From a virus, in the IMG/VR virus record IMGVR_UViG_3300028831_000484, positions 1-64,000 of that record: a DNA stretch of 64,000 nt; one strand, written 5' to 3'. Both the position numbers and the translations under genes were made by a program. Numbering within the stretch: position 1 is the stretch's first letter; each line of letters starts with the position of its first letter. Under the pieces are notes generated by a model, which worked only from the letters and a program-made list of their open reading frames with translations, was not told the origin of the DNA and did no database searches. This document shows positions 3,616 through 61,437 of the stretch, in pieces.

Positions 3616-3935
3616 GCGTCATCCATCACATGCGCCACGGGCACGCAGCCTGCGGTTTGCCAATGCCACCGGCTGAATGGCCGGAGGATCACAAATGGTC
3701 CGACAACTGGGACGAAGTCACCTGCCGTGGGTGCCTGTCGTATTATCCAACCTATGAGATTTCGCCCGACACAAAAAGCATCATCTGCCTGCGCTGCAAA
3801 CGAGCGTCGTCCAATCCAAACGACATTGCGCATCACTACTGCGGTTACTGCCACGTTTTCCACGACGACATCTGGCCACCGGCCAGGCAATGGTGGGTAA
3901 AAAGTTTCCAAGATGAAAGCCATCCGGGAAAGTAG
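3612..3935 (+). CDS. Double zinc-ribbon protein
   Basis: A 107-residue protein made of two metal-binding modules. The first has CG near residue 14 and CRGC around 38-41. The second has CLRC, then YCGYCHVFHDD, a segment found as a free-standing small protein in many phages and bacteria. The tandem organisation looks like a fusion. The TAG stop at 3933-3935 is itself part of the first unit of the repeat array that follows. Zinc binding is inferred from the motifs; its function is unknown. Confidence 0.7.
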   Translation: MSVIHHMRHGHAACGLPMPPAEWPEDHKWSDNWDEVTCRGCLSYYPTYEISPDTKSIICLRCKRASSNPNDIAHHYCGYCHVFHDDIWPPARQWWVKSFQDESHPGK

Positions 3936-4156
3936 CAACAAGGAAGCTCAACGTAGTTATAAAACGTAATAGCAACATAATGTCAGAACGCAAAGCCAGA
4001 GCTTCTGTTAGCAACAACGACGTAGTTCGTCAATCAACGACGATAGTAGCAACACAAACAAAGTTCCAAAGACAGACAAAGTGATCGCAACACAAACAAA
4101 GTTCGTAAAACAAAACGCAAGATAGCAACAACGACATAGTTAACAAACGAAAGAGT
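3931..4156 (+). repeat. Array 1: six units of two-block ~38-bp repeat
   Basis: GCAACA starts at 3935, 3972, 4011, 4049, 4087 and 4125 (spacings 37, 39, 38, 38, 38). Each is preceded by an AT/GT-A or TC triplet and followed by a second block (AACGTAGTTA, GACGTAGTTC, ACATAGTTA, weaker in two units). The array fills the gap between the stop of the zinc-ribbon gene and the HNH gene start. Another GCAACA at 4888 lies just past the HNH domain. Same family as the arrays at 6031, 58281 and 60620. Confidence 0.85.
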
Positions 4157-4912
4157 ATGGTGCAGTATAGATGTAATGCGTGCTTAGTGGATGGATGCAA
4201 CAGAGAAGTAGCGGCCGTTGGTTTGTGCCTGTGTCATTACCAACGAATGAGAAAACACGGAACTCTTCAATTGGAGCATCCTATCGGAGAGAAAAACGGG
4301 CACTGGAACTCACACCCGCCAGGCTCACGGCCAACCGGCACACCAACAAGAAGCTTAGAGCAATTCAGAAAACATTTCTGGAGTTGCGTCAGTATTGGTG
4401 AACCAAATGAGTGTTGGCTTTGGCTGAGGGCACTCGATGATCAGGGATATGGAACTCTATCGTGGAGGTATCTCTCCCAACAACCGATAAGCACACACCG
4501 TGTAGCGTGGTTTCTGACGCACGGCGAGCTGCCAAGTTTACTTGTCATGCATTCCTGCGACACGCCACCGTGCGTGAATCCAAAGCATCTGAGCCTTGGC
4601 ACTCACTTGGATAATGCCAGAGACAAAATAGCAAAAGGACGAGCACGGCAGGGGCATCTCTGTGGAGACAACCACCCATGGCGCCAGCATCCAGAACTCG
4701 TGCCGCGTGGGACAGCACACGGCATGTGCAAGCTAAGTGAAGCGCAGGTCATTGAGATTATCTCCATTCTTAACAGCACAGAGTATCGTCCAGGATTCGA
4801 TGAGAAACTAGCTAAGTGTTACGGAGTAACAAAGTATGTAGTCTATTCAATTAGGAAGTGCATCAAGTGGAAGCATATTCCAAGGTTAGCAACAACAACA
4901 ATGAAAGGTTAG
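4157..4912 (+). CDS. HNH_3-type homing endonuclease with N-terminal zinc finger
   Basis: A 251-residue endonuclease. The N-terminus has a Cys/His zinc finger (CLVDGCNREVAAVGLCLCHYQR). The central HNH_3 core runs HRVAWFLTHG, then HSCDTPPCVNPKHLSLGT. A C-terminal helical region starting at KLSEAQVIEI probably binds DNA. It starts right after array 1, and its last codons contain another GCAACA block, so the gene appears to sit within the array. The 3' end carries the ribosome-binding site (AAAGG) of the next gene. Confidence 0.85.
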   Translation: MVQYRCNACLVDGCNREVAAVGLCLCHYQRMRKHGTLQLEHPIGEKNGHWNSHPPGSRPTGTPTRSLEQFRKHFWSCVSIGEPNECWLWLRALDDQGYGTLSWRYLSQQPISTHRVAWFLTHGELPSLLVMHSCDTPPCVNPKHLSLGTHLDNARDKIAKGRARQGHLCGDNHPWRQHPELVPRGTAHGMCKLSEAQVIEIISILNSTEYRPGFDEKLAKCYGVTKYVVYSIRKCIKWKHIPRLATTTMKG

Positions 4913-4917
4913 ATACC

Positions 4918-6030
4918 ATGCAAGAAAAACAAGCAAATTGTCCGAACTGCGGCGTGGCCATCAAGATATTACTCACTGACTTTGATGAATCCGAATTAGT
5001 CATGAGACTATCTAAGGATTTGAAAGAGGCTGTAAAATTAATGACACCGAAGGAAGTGAGATTTACGGTAGATCAATACTATACTCTCCAGTCCAATCGC
5101 ATCCGTGCCGCTGGCCAGGTGCGGGCGATGACAGAGTCGAAGGAACCAAACACCGTGCTGCAATGGTTGACCGACAAGAGCGGCGTTCTGGAAAACCAAG
5201 TCAAGGCGGCATTGTTTGAATACGCCAACTCAAGGCTGGAGGGCCGGTGGTTGATGTCGCTGGTTGGCATCGGCCCGGTGCTGGCGGCAGCGTTAATGAG
5301 TAATACGAACCCGGAGCGCGCAACGACAGCCGGTAAACTTCAACGGTTCGCCGGGCTTGACCCGACAAAGAAATGGCTGGGCGTGAAGAAAGCGAATGCG
5401 CTTTACGACACTCTGAAGGACGCTTCGTTGGAGGAAATGATCATTGAAGCAGCCGAGAAAGTGAACACCACGCCGGAGTTGTTAACGGCGCTCATGCGCG
5501 ACAAGACTGGCAACCCGGTGATGACAGGCGAAGCCCTGCGTAAAGCAATGGCGCGTTGTCCGTGGAACGCGAGGTTCAAGACGGCGTGTTGGAAGTGCAG
5601 CGATATGTTCGTGAAGTTCTCTGGCCGTGACGACTGCTTCTACGGAGCAATCTACAAGAAGCGCAAGGCGCAGGAGATCGCTTACAACTCTCAGAAAAAG
5701 TTCGCAGACCAAGCCGCTCAGAAGTTGAAGGACTTCAAGATCGGCAAGAGCACCGATGCTTACAAAGCCTACATCCAAGGGTATCTGCCGGATGCGCACT
5801 TGCACGCTAGGGCCATGAGATACACGGTCAAAGTTTTGCTGAGTCATTGGCAATTGGTGGCCTATTGGTGCCACTTCAAGACCTTGCCGCCAGCACCGTA
5901 TGCACTCGTATATCTCAAGCCACTGGGCCACACACACCTTATTAAACCACCGAATCTGGAGCTGTTCGAGGAGTTCAAGCCGCTCATTGAAAAGTTGAAG
6001 GCTGAATGGCCGGAGTGGTGGGTGGATTAG
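4918..6030 (+). CDS. IS110/Transposase_20-like HhH protein without the DEDD domain
   Basis: A 370-residue protein. Residues about 112-155 (SLVGIGPVLAAALM, FAGLDPTKKW) resemble the helix-hairpin-helix C-terminal domain of IS110/IS116/IS902 transposases. The N-terminal RuvC-like DEDD nuclease domain is missing; instead there is a short CPNC zinc-type motif and a helical region. The catalytic serine expected near the FAGL block is not evident (TT/AG there). The rest is helical and basic. It lies between arrays 1 and 2. DNA binding or recombination is plausible; transposase activity is unlikely. Confidence 0.6.
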   Translation: MQEKQANCPNCGVAIKILLTDFDESELVMRLSKDLKEAVKLMTPKEVRFTVDQYYTLQSNRIRAAGQVRAMTESKEPNTVLQWLTDKSGVLENQVKAALFEYANSRLEGRWLMSLVGIGPVLAAALMSNTNPERATTAGKLQRFAGLDPTKKWLGVKKANALYDTLKDASLEEMIIEAAEKVNTTPELLTALMRDKTGNPVMTGEALRKAMARCPWNARFKTACWKCSDMFVKFSGRDDCFYGAIYKKRKAQEIAYNSQKKFADQAAQKLKDFKIGKSTDAYKAYIQGYLPDAHLHARAMRYTVKVLLSHWQLVAYWCHFKTLPPAPYALVYLKPLGHTHLIKPPNLELFEEFKPLIEKLKAEWPEWWVD

Positions 6031-6430
6031 TCATGTCACGAGATAGCAACAAAAGTCACGCACGTCAGTCATGACGTTCGCTCGCAACAACAACCATGCA
6101 CGCCAGCCATCGTCCGGATTAGCAACAAGCCGTACGTGCAGCCACGAGAAAAGCTGGCAACATACGAATAGTTAAAGTCACATCATGTAATCGCAACAAT
6201 GCCACTGAACGAGTCCTGTGATGCAATAGCAACAAGTTCGTTGAACGATCAGTTACGCTGCTCAATGGCAACAAGGAACTTGAGCGAGGCCAAGAACCGC
6301 GATAGCAACATAGCTTGCGAGCAGCCAACGTGTTCAATAGCAACAATTACGCCGAGCAGCCAAGCGTGCCAGTTGCAACAAAAGGAATGAACAAGCCAGG
6401 CATGCAGATTGCAACAGAGCGCATAATCGT
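6031..6430 (+). repeat. Array 2: eleven units of two-block ~37-bp repeat
   Basis: GCAACA starts at 6046, 6084, 6122, 6157, 6193, 6229, 6268, 6305, 6340, 6375 and 6411 (spacings 35-39). Most units carry the second block 16-20 bases in: ACGCCAGCCA, GTGCAGCCA, AACGAGTCC, GAGCGAGGCCA, CGAGCAGCCA (twice). The array occupies the whole 400-base gap between two + strand genes. There is no convincing ORF, and the period is not a multiple of three. Confidence 0.9.
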
Positions 6431-6804: not shown

Positions 6805-7974
6805 ATGAAGATAGAGAAAAACGCGGCCGGAATTTTTGTCGCCCGCGTCATAACAAGCAACGGTAAGCGGACAATCAATCTGCGAACCACAAACCTAGCC
6901 GAAGCCAAGGAAATTGCGGCAGAGGCAAACATTGAAAAGGCCGAATTGATTGCGAAGATCGGAGTCATAAAGCGGGACGTGATCGCACAGGTCGTACTGG
7001 CCCAGCGCATGTCGATGAAGGAATCCCTCAAGGAATGGGTTGACTGGCTGAAGCTGCACTCGTCACCCAAGCACGTCCTCAACATGGAGCAGGTGATGCG
7101 AGGGTGGATCAGGAAGATGAAGCTGGAGCAGCGCGCCGTCCATGAAATGACGGCACTGGACGTGGACCGGTGGATCAATACGGAGAACACCAACAAAGCG
7201 TCAACCAGGGAATTGAAGTTATCCTGCCTCCGTGGGTTCTTCCACTTCTGCGAAGGCCGTAACTACTGCGTTGGTAATCCGTGCCGGGAGATCCGCGTTC
7301 GCATGGACAACCTGCTGCTTGAACAGAAGGAAACCAAGTCAGCGCAGCCTTTGACGCAAGACTTGGTGGACATCATCACGAAGGCTTACGATGCTGAGAG
7401 AGCGGAGCTGAAGGTCCTCAGCGAAAAGGCTTACGCTGCGCATGAGCTGGCGATCAAGGAAGGCACGTACCTTCCGGCGCATTTGGCAAAGCGAGAGCGT
7501 TTGAGGAAGCTGATTGCCGAGAACCTGTTCTGGAGGTGCGCCACGCAGTTGGCTTGGGAGACCGGCCTGCGGCTTGGTGACATCTGCCAGTTGGAGTGGT
7601 CGTCAATCGCCGTGGCTGGCAAGCTGGTGGTCTGGACGGACAAGACCGATACCAGAGTGGAGCTGAAGATTAAACCGGGCCTGCAAGCGTTGCTGCGCAC
7701 TGCGCCGAAGACCGGCTCGCCTTGGGTGTTCCCGGATATGCAGCAGTTGTATTCGGATCCATACAAGCGAACCGCCTTATTCCAAGCGTTCCGGCGCCAC
7801 CTGAAGCGGCAGGGAATAGAAGGCTACACCTTCCACTCCCTGCGCCATAGTTACGCCACACGGTTAAGGGCGCGCAAGGTGCCGATGGAACACATCAGAC
7901 AGCGACTCGGGCACGCTTCCGTCGAGATGACGGAGCATTACATCCACGACCCAATCCACGACCAGCACGGCTGA
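6805..7974 (+). CDS. int: Tyrosine site-specific integrase
   Basis: A 389-residue phage integrase. The N-terminal part contains an Arm-type strand region and a SAM-like core-binding domain. The catalytic residues are visible: Arg256 (TGLRLGD), His344 and Arg347 (HSLRHSYAT), His370 (LGHAS) and nucleophile Tyr379 (EHYIHD). It would integrate or excise the phage at an attachment site. An AAAGG site precedes the start. The 3' end overlaps the convergent YegP-like gene by 80 bases. Confidence 0.95.
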   Translation: MKIEKNAAGIFVARVITSNGKRTINLRTTNLAEAKEIAAEANIEKAELIAKIGVIKRDVIAQVVLAQRMSMKESLKEWVDWLKLHSSPKHVLNMEQVMRGWIRKMKLEQRAVHEMTALDVDRWINTENTNKASTRELKLSCLRGFFHFCEGRNYCVGNPCREIRVRMDNLLLEQKETKSAQPLTQDLVDIITKAYDAERAELKVLSEKAYAAHELAIKEGTYLPAHLAKRERLRKLIAENLFWRCATQLAWETGLRLGDICQLEWSSIAVAGKLVVWTDKTDTRVELKIKPGLQALLRTAPKTGSPWVFPDMQQLYSDPYKRTALFQAFRRHLKRQGIEGYTFHSLRHSYATRLRARKVPMEHIRQRLGHASVEMTEHYIHDPIHDQHG

Positions 7975-9795: not shown

Positions 9796-10215
9796 TCACA
9801 ATTCGATCTTGTGTGCTTTGAATACCTCTCCGAGGTTCGTATGTGTCAGCGGCTTTTCGATGATGCCAACGTACCCGATCTTCATGGCATCCTGCAAATC
9901 CTCGCTGCGCGCATGACCGGTGACGATGACTACCGGAACATTCGGACACACCTGCTTGGCGGCTTTGAGCACGTCAACGCCGCTTCTGTTTTGCAGTTTC
10001 AAATCAAGGAACATCAGGTCAACGGCGTCGGTGGCGCTTCGCAGAAATCCAACCGCGTCATCCACGGACTTATGCCAGAACACCGTGCATCCCTGGTTTG
10101 ACAATGCTATTTTGGACAGTTCGCCCTCCTCCGCTTCGTCCTCCACCAGCAACACCTTTGGCGATCTGGCCAGTGTAGCCGCTAGTTTCTGCACGTATTT
10201 CAGCATTCTATCCAT
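9796..10215 (-). CDS. CheY-like response regulator receiver protein
   Basis: A 139-residue single-domain receiver. All key residues are present: acidic pair Glu25-Asp26 (LLVEDE), phosphoacceptor Asp71 (FLDLKL), Thr99 (IVTGH) and Lys121 (EKP). No output domain follows, so it would act by protein-protein contact or as a phosphate sink, like CheY. It lies between two membrane-protein genes in the presumed lysis cassette, six bases downstream of the gene at 10221. The start is inferred from the stop of that gene. It was probably acquired from a host. Confidence 0.9.
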   Translation of the reverse strand: MDRMLKYVQKLAATLARSPKVLLVEDEAEEGELSKIALSNQGCTVFWHKSVDDAVGFLRSATDAVDLMFLDLKLQNRSGVDVLKAAKQVCPNVPVVIVTGHARSEDLQDAMKIGYVGIIEKPLTHTNLGEVFKAHKIEL

Positions 10216-10220
10216 TTCGA

Positions 10221-10580
10221 CTAATGCTTGAGCCAGTTCTCTATGACTTTGCTTACTATGACCGGAAGTCCCAGCAGTGCGAGATAGGCCGGTATCGACC
10301 ATTTGCTTACTAGCAGTGACCGCCATCTTTCCTGTTTCCATAGTCTGTACTCCAGTGTTCGCACCTGCTTGTTCAACAGGAGCATTTGCGCCGTGTTGAA
10401 ATCCGACTGCTGAGCCATCATGTCCAGCGTCGCAACGACTTCACGCTCGCGCCGAGTGAGGTTCGGTGAATCCAAAAGGTCTGGTGGGATCCGTGGTTGA
10501 AACGCAGGCCGCTCCACAGCCGGAAACTGGGAGCGCTCAAACAGGTCTGTGTCTCCTTCCGGTTCACGTTCGTTGCTCAT
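10221..10580 (-). CDS. C-terminally anchored membrane protein with coiled coil
   Basis: A 119-residue protein. The N-terminal 40 residues are Pro/acidic-rich, a helical or coiled-coil section follows (about 42-88), and one hydrophobic segment near the C-terminus (YLALLGLPVIVSKVI) would anchor it in the membrane. It could be a spanin- or holin-like lysis protein, or a membrane partner of the adjacent response regulator. The assignment rests on topology and position only. Confidence 0.5.
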   Translation of the reverse strand: MSNEREPEGDTDLFERSQFPAVERPAFQPRIPPDLLDSPNLTRREREVVATLDMMAQQSDFNTAQMLLLNKQVRTLEYRLWKQERWRSLLVSKWSIPAYLALLGLPVIVSKVIENWLKH

Positions 10581-10599
10581 TTGTTAACGCCATGATCGT

Positions 10600-12006
10600 T
10601 CAGTTCGTTGTCACCGTAGCACCGCGTGTTACTAACGCCGCCGCATCAGTTAATCCCTGGCCGGTTGGCTGCGCATTAGTTCCGCCGTTGAGCAGCACCG
10701 TCTCGCCAGTTGTGCCCCATGTTGGTGTAGCTATCAAGAAGGCAAGGATGGCATTCACACTAGCTGCATTTAGCGAATTGCCAGTGAAATCATAATTGAC
10801 ACCGGCAGTTGCCACGTAGTTAGCCAGAGTGAGGGTGGTTAGCAACACGTTGGACTTTATGGTTATGCCACCAGTTGCGGCAACCAGGAGCGGAAGATTG
10901 ACGGTCGTAAGCAGGGTATTGTTTTGAAAAGTCAAAGCCGTGCAGGTGGTTAAACTGGCCAGAACGGTTGAGTCAATTGTCGTTAAGTTGGTGGCCTCAA
11001 TCGTCAGCGCGTTGCAGGTCTCCAACAACGGAATTGATAATGCCGATACAGCCGAAATGCTTATCTGTCCACCAGTGTTAATCGTCGTCAGCGCTGGCAA
11101 TGAAAGCGAAGGATGAACTGACCCGGCTGGCTGAAAAATAAACGCGCCACACGTCTCCAGCAACGGGACGGACAACGTCGTAAGCGATGGGCAATTGCTG
11201 ACCTCCACTGCTCCGTCCGTAGCTGTACCAAGCGATGGCAGTAATATCTGCTCCAGTAATGCGGCACCTGCAAAAGACATCCCATGACACGTTGTAAGCT
11301 CCGGGAAATTAAGCTCCGTGAGAGAATCACAAGTAATAACATTGAAATTGCCGCCGATCACTTTCAACGCGGGGAAAAGCAGTGAAGCCAAAAGCGGGCA
11401 AATACGAAGATAAAAATAACTGCTTGCTTCAAGCGTCGTTAACAGCGGGAATGAAAGGCTGAGCAATTGGTTCATGCTCTCAAAGTCGTAGCCTTGCTTA
11501 GCTGACACATGGTTTATCACCAAGTCAGTAATGTCATTGTCATCAGCTTGATAAACGAATAAGCCAAGGTTGCCAGCCTTGTCCGATGGTGTAACAACAA
11601 CGTCAGCGCCACCTGTACCATCAGCGGGCAGGTACAATTTCGTGCCATGCAAATTATCCAACATCGGCCCGCCCTGCACATTCAACTCAACCTTCTTCTT
11701 ACGCCACATCTCGCAGGTCAACGAAATGGCGTCGTCCGTTGTGGCTTCGGCCGATGAACCCGGCACACGAATTACGAATGTATCCGTGTCTGTGACGATG
11801 GCCGCTTCTCCTTTTGGCGTGTTGAACTCGTCCTCCTTTGCTCCAGAAATGTAAACCCTCGTTCCGTTTTGCAGGTTGTGATCACCATCCGTGGTGACCA
11901 CAACTTTCTGCGTATCACCAACTCGCTCCATGCTGGTGATGCCGATGGTGGTTAAGCGATCCGGCGTGGACCCGCCAACCGAAAGTGTTAGAAATCCGTT
12001 TCGCAT
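10600..12006 (-). CDS. Leucine-rich-repeat beta-solenoid surface protein (paralogue 1)
   Basis: A 468-residue protein. The N-terminal about 110 residues form a beta module (RVYISGAKEDEFN, DTFVIRVPG). Residues 160-440 contain repeated strands of the type LTTLSVPLLETC, NLTTID, LTFQNNTLLTTV, as in BspA/receptor-L-type LRR solenoids. The protein ends in a conserved tail (RGATVTTN) shared with its neighbour. It is probably a host- or glycan-binding virion component. It follows the second paralogue with one base between them. Confidence 0.7.
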   Translation of the reverse strand: MRNGFLTLSVGGSTPDRLTTIGITSMERVGDTQKVVVTTDGDHNLQNGTRVYISGAKEDEFNTPKGEAAIVTDTDTFVIRVPGSSAEATTDDAISLTCEMWRKKKVELNVQGGPMLDNLHGTKLYLPADGTGGADVVVTPSDKAGNLGLFVYQADDNDITDLVINHVSAKQGYDFESMNQLLSLSFPLLTTLEASSYFYLRICPLLASLLFPALKVIGGNFNVITCDSLTELNFPELTTCHGMSFAGAALLEQILLPSLGTATDGAVEVSNCPSLTTLSVPLLETCGAFIFQPAGSVHPSLSLPALTTINTGGQISISAVSALSIPLLETCNALTIEATNLTTIDSTVLASLTTCTALTFQNNTLLTTVNLPLLVAATGGITIKSNVLLTTLTLANYVATAGVNYDFTGNSLNAASVNAILAFLIATPTWGTTGETVLLNGGTNAQPTGQGLTDAAALVTRGATVTTN

Positions 12007-60619: not shown

Positions 60620-61437
60620 GATGACTACGCTCTGCCATTTTGTTGCGAATGCTGCTCCTGGCTATCGAACAACCATATTGTTGCTATCACTGTCTCTGTC
60701 TTTTAACTATTCATTCTTGGGCTTTGTTGCCATTTCCACTTGCGGCTGCGTGCTACGAGCTTGTTGCGATTTGCCGTTATAACTACTTCATTACCGTGTT
60801 GCTACTTGGTGCTGTGGTTACGAGCTTTCGCCTTGTTGCTATTCAGCATGATGCCTTCGTGCACACTGTTTGTTGCGAACTGGTTGTTTGACTGCGTTCG
60901 GGATTTTTGTTGCCATCTGCTGCTACGACTTCATACGACGTTCCGGTTGCAAACCTCTTCTGTGATTGCGTGCCTTCTCTCTGTTGCCATCGGGCTTAGT
61001 GACTTCATTCGCGGCAAATGTTGCCATCACAGTCTGCGGCTGCGTGCTCATTATATGTTGCCATCAGGATTCATGACTTCGTGCTCGGTGAACGTTGCTA
61101 TCGACACCCTTAACTACGCTCTTCGGCATTGTCGCCATCATTATTCTTGGCTGCACTCGTCTGGTCTGTTGCGATTCAAGCGCGTGATTAACGCATGAGC
61201 TTTCTGTCGCTATTTGCTACGTTGGCTTCGTTCGCTCAGGGATCTTGTCGCTATCCAGCATATTGGCTGCGCGTGTAACGTTCTTGTTGCGATGCTCCTT
61301 CATGACTACGTTTTATGAACACGGCATTATTGTTGCGATTCCTCACCATGGCTACGCTTTGTGCTCCTGTTGCAATTTCCCATCGTAACTACGTTCGGCC
61401 AATTTGTTGCGATCTTGTGATGTGACTGGGTTATGGG
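60620..61437 (-). repeat. Array 3: about 21 units of a two-block 37-bp repeat
   Basis: The 818-base gap between two - strand genes. TGTTGC (sense strand GCAACA) begins at 60641, 60679, 60725, 60762, 60797, 60834, 60871, 60908, 60945, 60982, 61019, 61056, 61093, 61130, 61167, 61205, 61246, 61285, 61331, 61368 and 61405, with TGTCGC, CGTTGC or GGTTGC at a few positions. Eleven consecutive units (60797-61167) are exactly 37 bp apart. The sense-strand unit is GCAACA, 10-11 free bases, ACGHAGYCA, about 9 bases, GATN. No coding or CRISPR explanation fits. Confidence 0.9.

What the first reader, a model, noticed from the sequence alone, without database searches (positions are those of the whole stretch)
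60620..61437. Array of ~21 diverged two-block repeats locked to an exact 37-bp phase
Between two - strand genes lie about 21 units whose sense strand reads GCAACA, 10-11 free bases, ACGHAGYCA, about 9 bases, GATN. Eleven consecutive units (60797 to 61167) are exactly 37 bp apart even though most bases in between differ. Diverged repeats without indels imply selection on spacing: 37 bp is about 3.5 DNA turns and not a coding multiple of three. The array starts at the stop codon of one gene and ends at the start codon of the next. It does not look like CRISPR (both blocks degenerate, no spacer/repeat distinction), plasmid iterons (too degenerate, many loci) or a coding repeat.
Basis: partly seen in the sequence, partly recalled or inferred. 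Interest (0 to 1): 0.88.

Follow-up and report, generated by a model that had tools for sequence, protein, structure and literature searches.

The report
Phage TIGR guide-RNA array, degenerate variant
The puzzling 37-bp repeats are a string of 21 short guide-RNA units of the recently described TIGR-Tas kind (an RNA-guided DNA-binding system unrelated to CRISPR); the phage carries three more such arrays and, far away from this one, the gene for the matching guide-binding protein.

Summary
The repeats are real: 21 units, 10 consecutive intervals of exactly 37 bp, far above chance. They form a dual-repeat TIGR array on the - strand. The unit is an edge repeat (GNNCG-linker-AGYCA), an 8-nt spacer A, a loop repeat (RATNGCAACA) and an 8-nt spacer B. 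Half-edges, spacers and loop add up to 36 nt, the known tigRNA length; "37" is 36 plus a 1-nt linker, and other units carry other linkers. Bases covary between facing halves of adjacent edge repeats, i.e. the two ends of one tigRNA (19/21 units, p about 5e-5), but not between halves of the same repeat. Three more arrays share the repeats (43 units in all). Two flank a solo-Nop gene (4918-6030) whose fold matches TasH/TasR. Of 80 viral homologue loci, 68 have a 34-39-bp periodic array within 1.5 kb. The system is TIGR-TasA. Unusual: degenerate edges, variable linkers, arrays tens of kb from tasA, and one unit enclosed by a 12-bp stem (possible dual-repeat/stem-loop hybrid). Targets are unknown; none was found in its own genome.

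The parts
60622..61427 (-). TIGR array A3 (the finding): 21 tigRNA units, edge repeats GNNCG-N-AGYCA, loop repeats RATNGCAACA, 8+8-nt spacers
3912..4143 (+). TIGR array A1: 6 units, upstream of the HNH and tasA genes
4157..4912 (+). HNH_3 endonuclease gene (probably a homing endonuclease) between array A1 and tasA
4918..6030 (+). tasA: solo Nop-type Tas protein, 370 aa, no nuclease domain, with an extra ~55 aa inside the Nop domain
6029..6429 (+). TIGR array A2: 11 units; its first half-edge AGTCA overlaps the tasA stop codon and it ends 1 bp before the next ORF

Best explanation
A dual-repeat TIGR array belonging to a TIGR-TasA system. Most likely working: the array is transcribed on the - strand with its neighbour genes. 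The precursor is cut inside each edge repeat and trimmed to 36-nt tigRNAs (AGYCA - spacer A 8 - RATNGCAACA - spacer B 8 - GNNCG). In each tigRNA the two half-edges pair with each other, and U3-A8 closes the loop repeat. A TasA dimer made from the gene at 4918-6030 holds the RNA, and the two 8-nt spacers pair with opposite strands of a 16-bp DNA target. TasA has no nuclease, so the outcome is binding and bending, i.e. blocking, of a competitor's or host's DNA rather than cutting. SHOWN here: array anatomy, homology and fold of TasA, periodic arrays next to most homologues, covariation at tigRNA ends. INFERRED from Faure et al. 2025 (PMC12045711): transcription, processing, RNA loading, DNA targeting. 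UNKNOWN: targets and biological purpose. The confidence given is for membership in TIGR-TasA; for blocking as the outcome it is about 0.5.
For: Anatomy: spacers A and B carry 0-0.4 bit per column, the loop repeat up to 1.95 bit. The 21 cores align without gaps at 36 nt, the tigRNA length reported in PMC12045711. Covariation: core positions 2-35 and 3-34 are paired in 95% of cells; whole structure 96.8% against 84.2% shuffled, 0 of 500 shuffles as high, 11 doubly changed cells against 3.7. Both pairs form in 19/21 units, p about 5e-5; halves of one and the same repeat show nothing (11/20, p 0.52); the tigRNA register beats all nine shifted registers. Independent check in relatives: edge-like repeats covary between neighbours (z 4.4 and 6.5), not within a repeat (1.0, -1.2), while loop-like repeats covary within the repeat (z 3.5). 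Protein: phmmer to 9MTY (TasR) E 1.5e-5; family profile to TasR 1.3e-27 and TasH 3e-14, ahead of IS621 1e-5; AlphaFold model pLDDT 90 with the ten best Foldseek hits all TasH/TasR. Genome: same repeats on both sides of tasA. A 44%-identical homologue in a bacterial genome has its own dual-repeat array; 68 of 80 viral homologue loci have a 34-39-bp periodic array within 1.5 kb.
Against: No RNA data. Unit length varies here (35-46 bp) whereas relatives keep 36 in 1484 of 1560 intervals. Arrays A1, A2 and A4 show weaker pairing than A3. This array lies over 50 kb from tasA in the record, and relatives' arrays sit near the gene. No target was found in the own genome above chance nor in the loci held.
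Confidence: 0.95

Rival explanations
1. A TIGR array in decay: the system once worked, and the degenerate edges and uneven linkers show loss of function.
For: Edge repeats and spacing are far less regular than in relatives; two units of A3 have 9-10 extra bases; A1, A2 and A4 pair less well.
Against: The loop repeat is sharp (T3-A8 in 42/42), the 8-nt spacers and 36-nt core are kept, and the compensatory changes in A3 need continued selection. tasA is intact with a confident fold.
Confidence: 0.1
2. An array of protein-binding sites on DNA (iterons, partition or operator sites) with helical phasing.
For: Regular 37-bp phase over 370 bp; diverged repeats in an intergenic stretch.
Against: The period is 36 plus a linker and drifts from 35 to 46, so phase would be lost. 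The covariation follows base pairing in the register of a processed RNA, which duplex DNA sites would not produce. The same repeats flank a Tas gene.
Confidence: 0.02
3. The tasA-like gene is an IS110-type transposase and the repeats are unrelated (PHROG 4285 is labelled 'transposase').
For: Pfam Transposase_20 match; PHROG label.
Against: No Pfam match to the IS110 nuclease domain, solo-Nop length, profile and fold closer to Tas than to IS110, and 68/80 viral homologue loci with a periodic array.
Confidence: 0.02

Closest known systems
TIGR-TasA systems with dual-repeat arrays (Faure et al. 2025, Science, PMC12045711)
   Same: Solo Nop protein, arrays on both sides of its gene, alternating ~10-nt edge and loop repeats with short (here 8-nt) spacers, 36-nt unit core, pairing between half-edges, truncated edges at array ends, phage genome.
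   Different: Edge repeats split by a variable 0-10-nt linker (period 35-46 instead of 36), very diverged edges, two further arrays tens of kb away on the other strand, one unit enclosed by a 12-bp stem, ~55-aa insertion in the protein.
TIGR stem-loop arrays (same paper)
   Same: One unit at the end of array A4 (L001 about 5460-5520, -) is enclosed by a 12-bp perfect stem.
   Different: All other units have dual repeats, not stems; the protein belongs to the family whose arrays are of the dual-repeat type.
IS110 transposases with bridge RNA
   Same: Related RNA-binding domain (profile E 1e-5 to IS621).
   Different: No Pfam match to a transposase nuclease domain; arrays of many guides instead of one bridge RNA.
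CRISPR arrays
   Same: Repeats alternate with variable guide segments.
   Different: Two different short repeats and 8-nt spacers instead of one long repeat and long spacers; the associated protein is a Tas.

Membership tests
TIGR-Tas | Array of two distinct alternating 8-12-nt repeats with short (mostly 9-nt, up to 12; 8 in SpTIGR) spacers | tested here: met
   Loop repeat 10 nt; edge repeat 5+5 nt plus linker (most 9-13 nt, three of 15-20, so partly beyond the published range); spacers 8 nt without information content
TIGR-Tas | Array begins and ends with a truncated edge repeat | tested here: met
   All four arrays start with at least the right half and end with at least the left half of the edge repeat
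TIGR-Tas | Nop-domain Tas protein encoded with an array | tested here: met
   tasA 4918-6030 between arrays A1 and A2; profile hits to TasR and TasH, fold hits. PF01798 itself gives no match; PF02371 does
TIGR-Tas | Edge-repeat base pairs supported by covariation, formed between neighbouring edges of one tigRNA | tested here: met
TIGR-Tas | Predicted rho-independent terminator after the array | tested here: not met
   None found after A3 or A2; the paper says 'typically', so this is not treated as excluding
TIGR-Tas | Processing to 36-nt tigRNAs that bind Tas | not testable with these tools
   No RNA data; the core length of 36 nt fits
TIGR-Tas | tigRNA-directed binding of a DNA target by both spacers | tested here: inconclusive
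   No own-genome target above chance; no clear excess in 2.35 Mb of held loci
TIGR-Tas (TasA subtype) | Nop domain alone, no HNH or RuvC fused | tested here: met
   370 aa, only ~25 poorly ordered residues before the Nop domain; the HNH gene is separate
CRISPR | One repeat of 25-36 nt with spacers of similar length | tested here: not met
IS110 transposase | N-terminal DEDD nuclease domain | tested here: not met
   Only Transposase_20 matched by Pfam; solo-Nop length and model

The most novel reading that the evidence does not exclude
A dispersed, hybrid TIGR-TasA system: 43 guides in four arrays, two of them tens of kb from tasA and acting in trans, with loosely spaced diverged units and one unit in which the edge repeat is backed by a 12-bp stem. 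That would be a natural intermediate between the dual-repeat and stem-loop array types, which the founding paper reports from separate clades.
Probability: 0.35. Interest if true: 0.72.

Novelty: new variant of a known kind. Interest (0 to 1): 0.6.

Why it matters
TIGR-Tas is a newly found RNA-guided DNA-targeting family of unknown biological role. Because this phage's edge repeats have diverged from unit to unit, it offers a natural test that uniform arrays cannot: bases covary between neighbouring edge repeats, as expected if each unit is cut out and selected as its own tigRNA. That supports, from sequence evolution alone, the pairing seen in the TasR structure. The dispersed arrays and the stem-enclosed unit bear on how arrays spread and on how the two array types are related. 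PHROG 4285, labelled 'transposase', appears to be TasA, so many viral TIGR systems may be hidden under that name.

Tried and rejected
Phage DNA similarity and tblastn with the window TasA: no match. PF01798 on the own genome: no match, because Tas is closer to the IS110 model. Self-targets in four spacer arrangements and gaps 0-2: at chance. Pooled target search with 1566 spacer pairs against 2.35 Mb: 5 queries with exact hits in the expected arrangement against 1-4 in controls, not convincing. Rfam: nothing. Promoters and intrinsic terminators: no more than in shuffles. Stem-enclosed units in relatives: none over 9 bp.

Full report
Setting. The window is bases 1-64000 of a 77,647-bp virus record. 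I read the remaining bases as locus L001 (record 60001-77647). The phage has virion, terminase, RecT and integrase genes. No near relative is in the phage collection.

On the - strand there are 21 GCAACA-like blocks from 61410 to 60646, and 11 of them in a row are exactly 37 bp apart. Similarly spaced pairs are expected 0.02 times in shuffled windows and occur 16 times; the lag-37 signal is the strongest in the record.

The same motif marks three other places: 3931-4156 (+), 6042-6430 (+) and record 65544-65661 (-). The first two enclose an HNH_3 gene (4157-4912) and an ORF at 4918-6030 with a Transposase_20 (IS110 RNA-binding) match. That combination suggested TIGR-Tas, described in 2025 (PMC12045711).

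The protein is a Tas. As a single sequence it hits PDB 9MTY (E 1.5e-5), which that paper names as the TasR structure. PHROG 4285 matches at 1e-30. A search of 398 genomes of one phylum (that of Paraburkholderia) gave one full-length homologue, 44% identical to the window protein, with a dual-repeat array directly upstream and E 3e-14 / 7e-12 to TasR / TasH. It also finds Salicola phage CGphi29, the source of the published TasH. With both sequences, 80 viral loci were found. A 54-sequence profile hits TasR at 1.3e-27 and TasH at 3e-14, IS621 at 1e-5. The AlphaFold model (pLDDT 90, pTM 0.85) has ten TasH/TasR chains as its best PDB matches. There is no fused nuclease: it is a TasA.

The arrays of the family. 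Most of the 80 loci show a strong 36-bp period (34-35 in a few) beside tasA; 68 of 80 have a 34-39-bp periodic array within 1.5 kb. The consensus is two 10-nt repeats such as GAGCGAGCCA and GAGAGNACCA with 8-nt spacers. Of 1560 measured intervals 1484 are 36 bp.

Anatomy here. Anchoring on the sharp 10-nt repeat RATNGCAACA, the 8 bases on either side are without information, and what remains is a split repeat GNNCG - linker - AGYCA, 9 to 20 nt long. It stands at both ends of all four arrays, complete or truncated, so by the published definition it is the edge repeat and RATNGCAACA the loop repeat. Half-edge (5) + spacer A (8) + loop (10) + spacer B (8) + half-edge (5) = 36 nt. So the 37-bp phase is a 36-nt tigRNA core plus one linker base; the other units have other linkers. 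Nothing points to DNA helical phase.

Covariation test. The published structure and the family consensus predict pairs between edge positions 3-8 and 4-7, formed between neighbouring edges because the RNA is cut in the middle of each edge. In this array edges differ from unit to unit, so the two possibilities can be told apart. Between neighbours (ends of one tigRNA) both pairs form in 19 of 21 units (11.7 expected, p about 5e-5); within a repeat in 11 of 20 (10.6 expected). Shifted registers give 0.50-0.65 against 0.90. The pair counter gives 96.8% paired cells against 84.2% shuffled and 3-88% when slid. All four arrays together: 32/42 and 37/42 (p 2e-4 and 0.003), though A1, A2 and A4 alone are weak. 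In relatives, edge-like repeats covary between neighbours (z 4.4, 6.5) and not within, and loop-like repeats the other way round (edges were chosen there by consensus pairing).

What is unusual. (1) Variable linkers and diverged edges: only 3 of 38 intervals are 36 bp. (2) Arrays at 60.6 and 65.5 kb while tasA is at 4.9 kb, on the other strand. In the 14 relatives whose matches were listed, repeats lie within about 9 kb of tasA, mostly within 3 kb (distances worked out from the locus ranges; that list was cut). The record has no terminal repeat; on a circular map the distance would be 16-21 kb. (3) After array A4 one more unit is enclosed by a 12-bp perfect stem, GCGCGCCCGGCC/GGCCGGGCGCGC; random positions gave at most 9 bp in 4000 trials and relatives at most 9. 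It could instead be a separate hairpin in front of the next gene. (4) About 55 extra residues between the GLDP and PWNA motifs of TasA (65 against 10 in nearly all relatives), confidently folded.

Function. Targets were not found; 16-bp targets cannot be told from chance in large collections. Without a nuclease, RNA-guided binding that blocks a competitor or host gene is my best guess, about 0.5; help to the nearby integrase (6805-7974), which the paper raises for TasA in general, about 0.1; the rest is open.

Verdict: a TIGR-TasA array, new variant of a known kind; not a new category.

Noticed in passing
L001 about 5460-5520 (-), record 65460-65520: A fifth unit of array A4 (AGACA AGCACGGG AATTGCAACA ACCGATGC GATGC) enclosed by a 12-bp perfect GC-only stem, just before the start of the next ORF; possible dual-repeat/stem-loop hybrid.
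   Followed up: partly
4157-4912, and L212 9450-10001: A related HNH gene stands immediately upstream of tasA in this phage and in one relative, in both cases between array and tasA: homing endonuclease or a separate nuclease partner.
   Followed up: partly
4918-6030 and L146-L225 (PHROG 4285): This phage protein family, labelled 'transposase' in PHROGs, appears to be TasA.
   Followed up: yes
4045-4120; also L170, L174, L200, L219, L220: Repeated spacers within or between arrays (e.g. spacer B CAAACAAA in A1 units 4 and 5) suggest that arrays grow by unit duplication. GAAAGCTC occurs as spacer B of A3 unit 6 and spacer A of A4 unit 1.
   Followed up: partly
5370-5560 (TasA residues about 154-212): An insertion of about 55 residues inside the Nop domain, confidently folded as helices, rare in relatives (similar length in L171).
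   Followed up: partly
L167 (record handle G812): A 188-kb phage contig with degenerate arrays spread over 13 kb around its tasA.
   Followed up: no
L205 about 9980-11290: A relative whose repeats resemble those of the window (GCAACA and AACGA-TCA types) but with 36-bp units.
   Followed up: no
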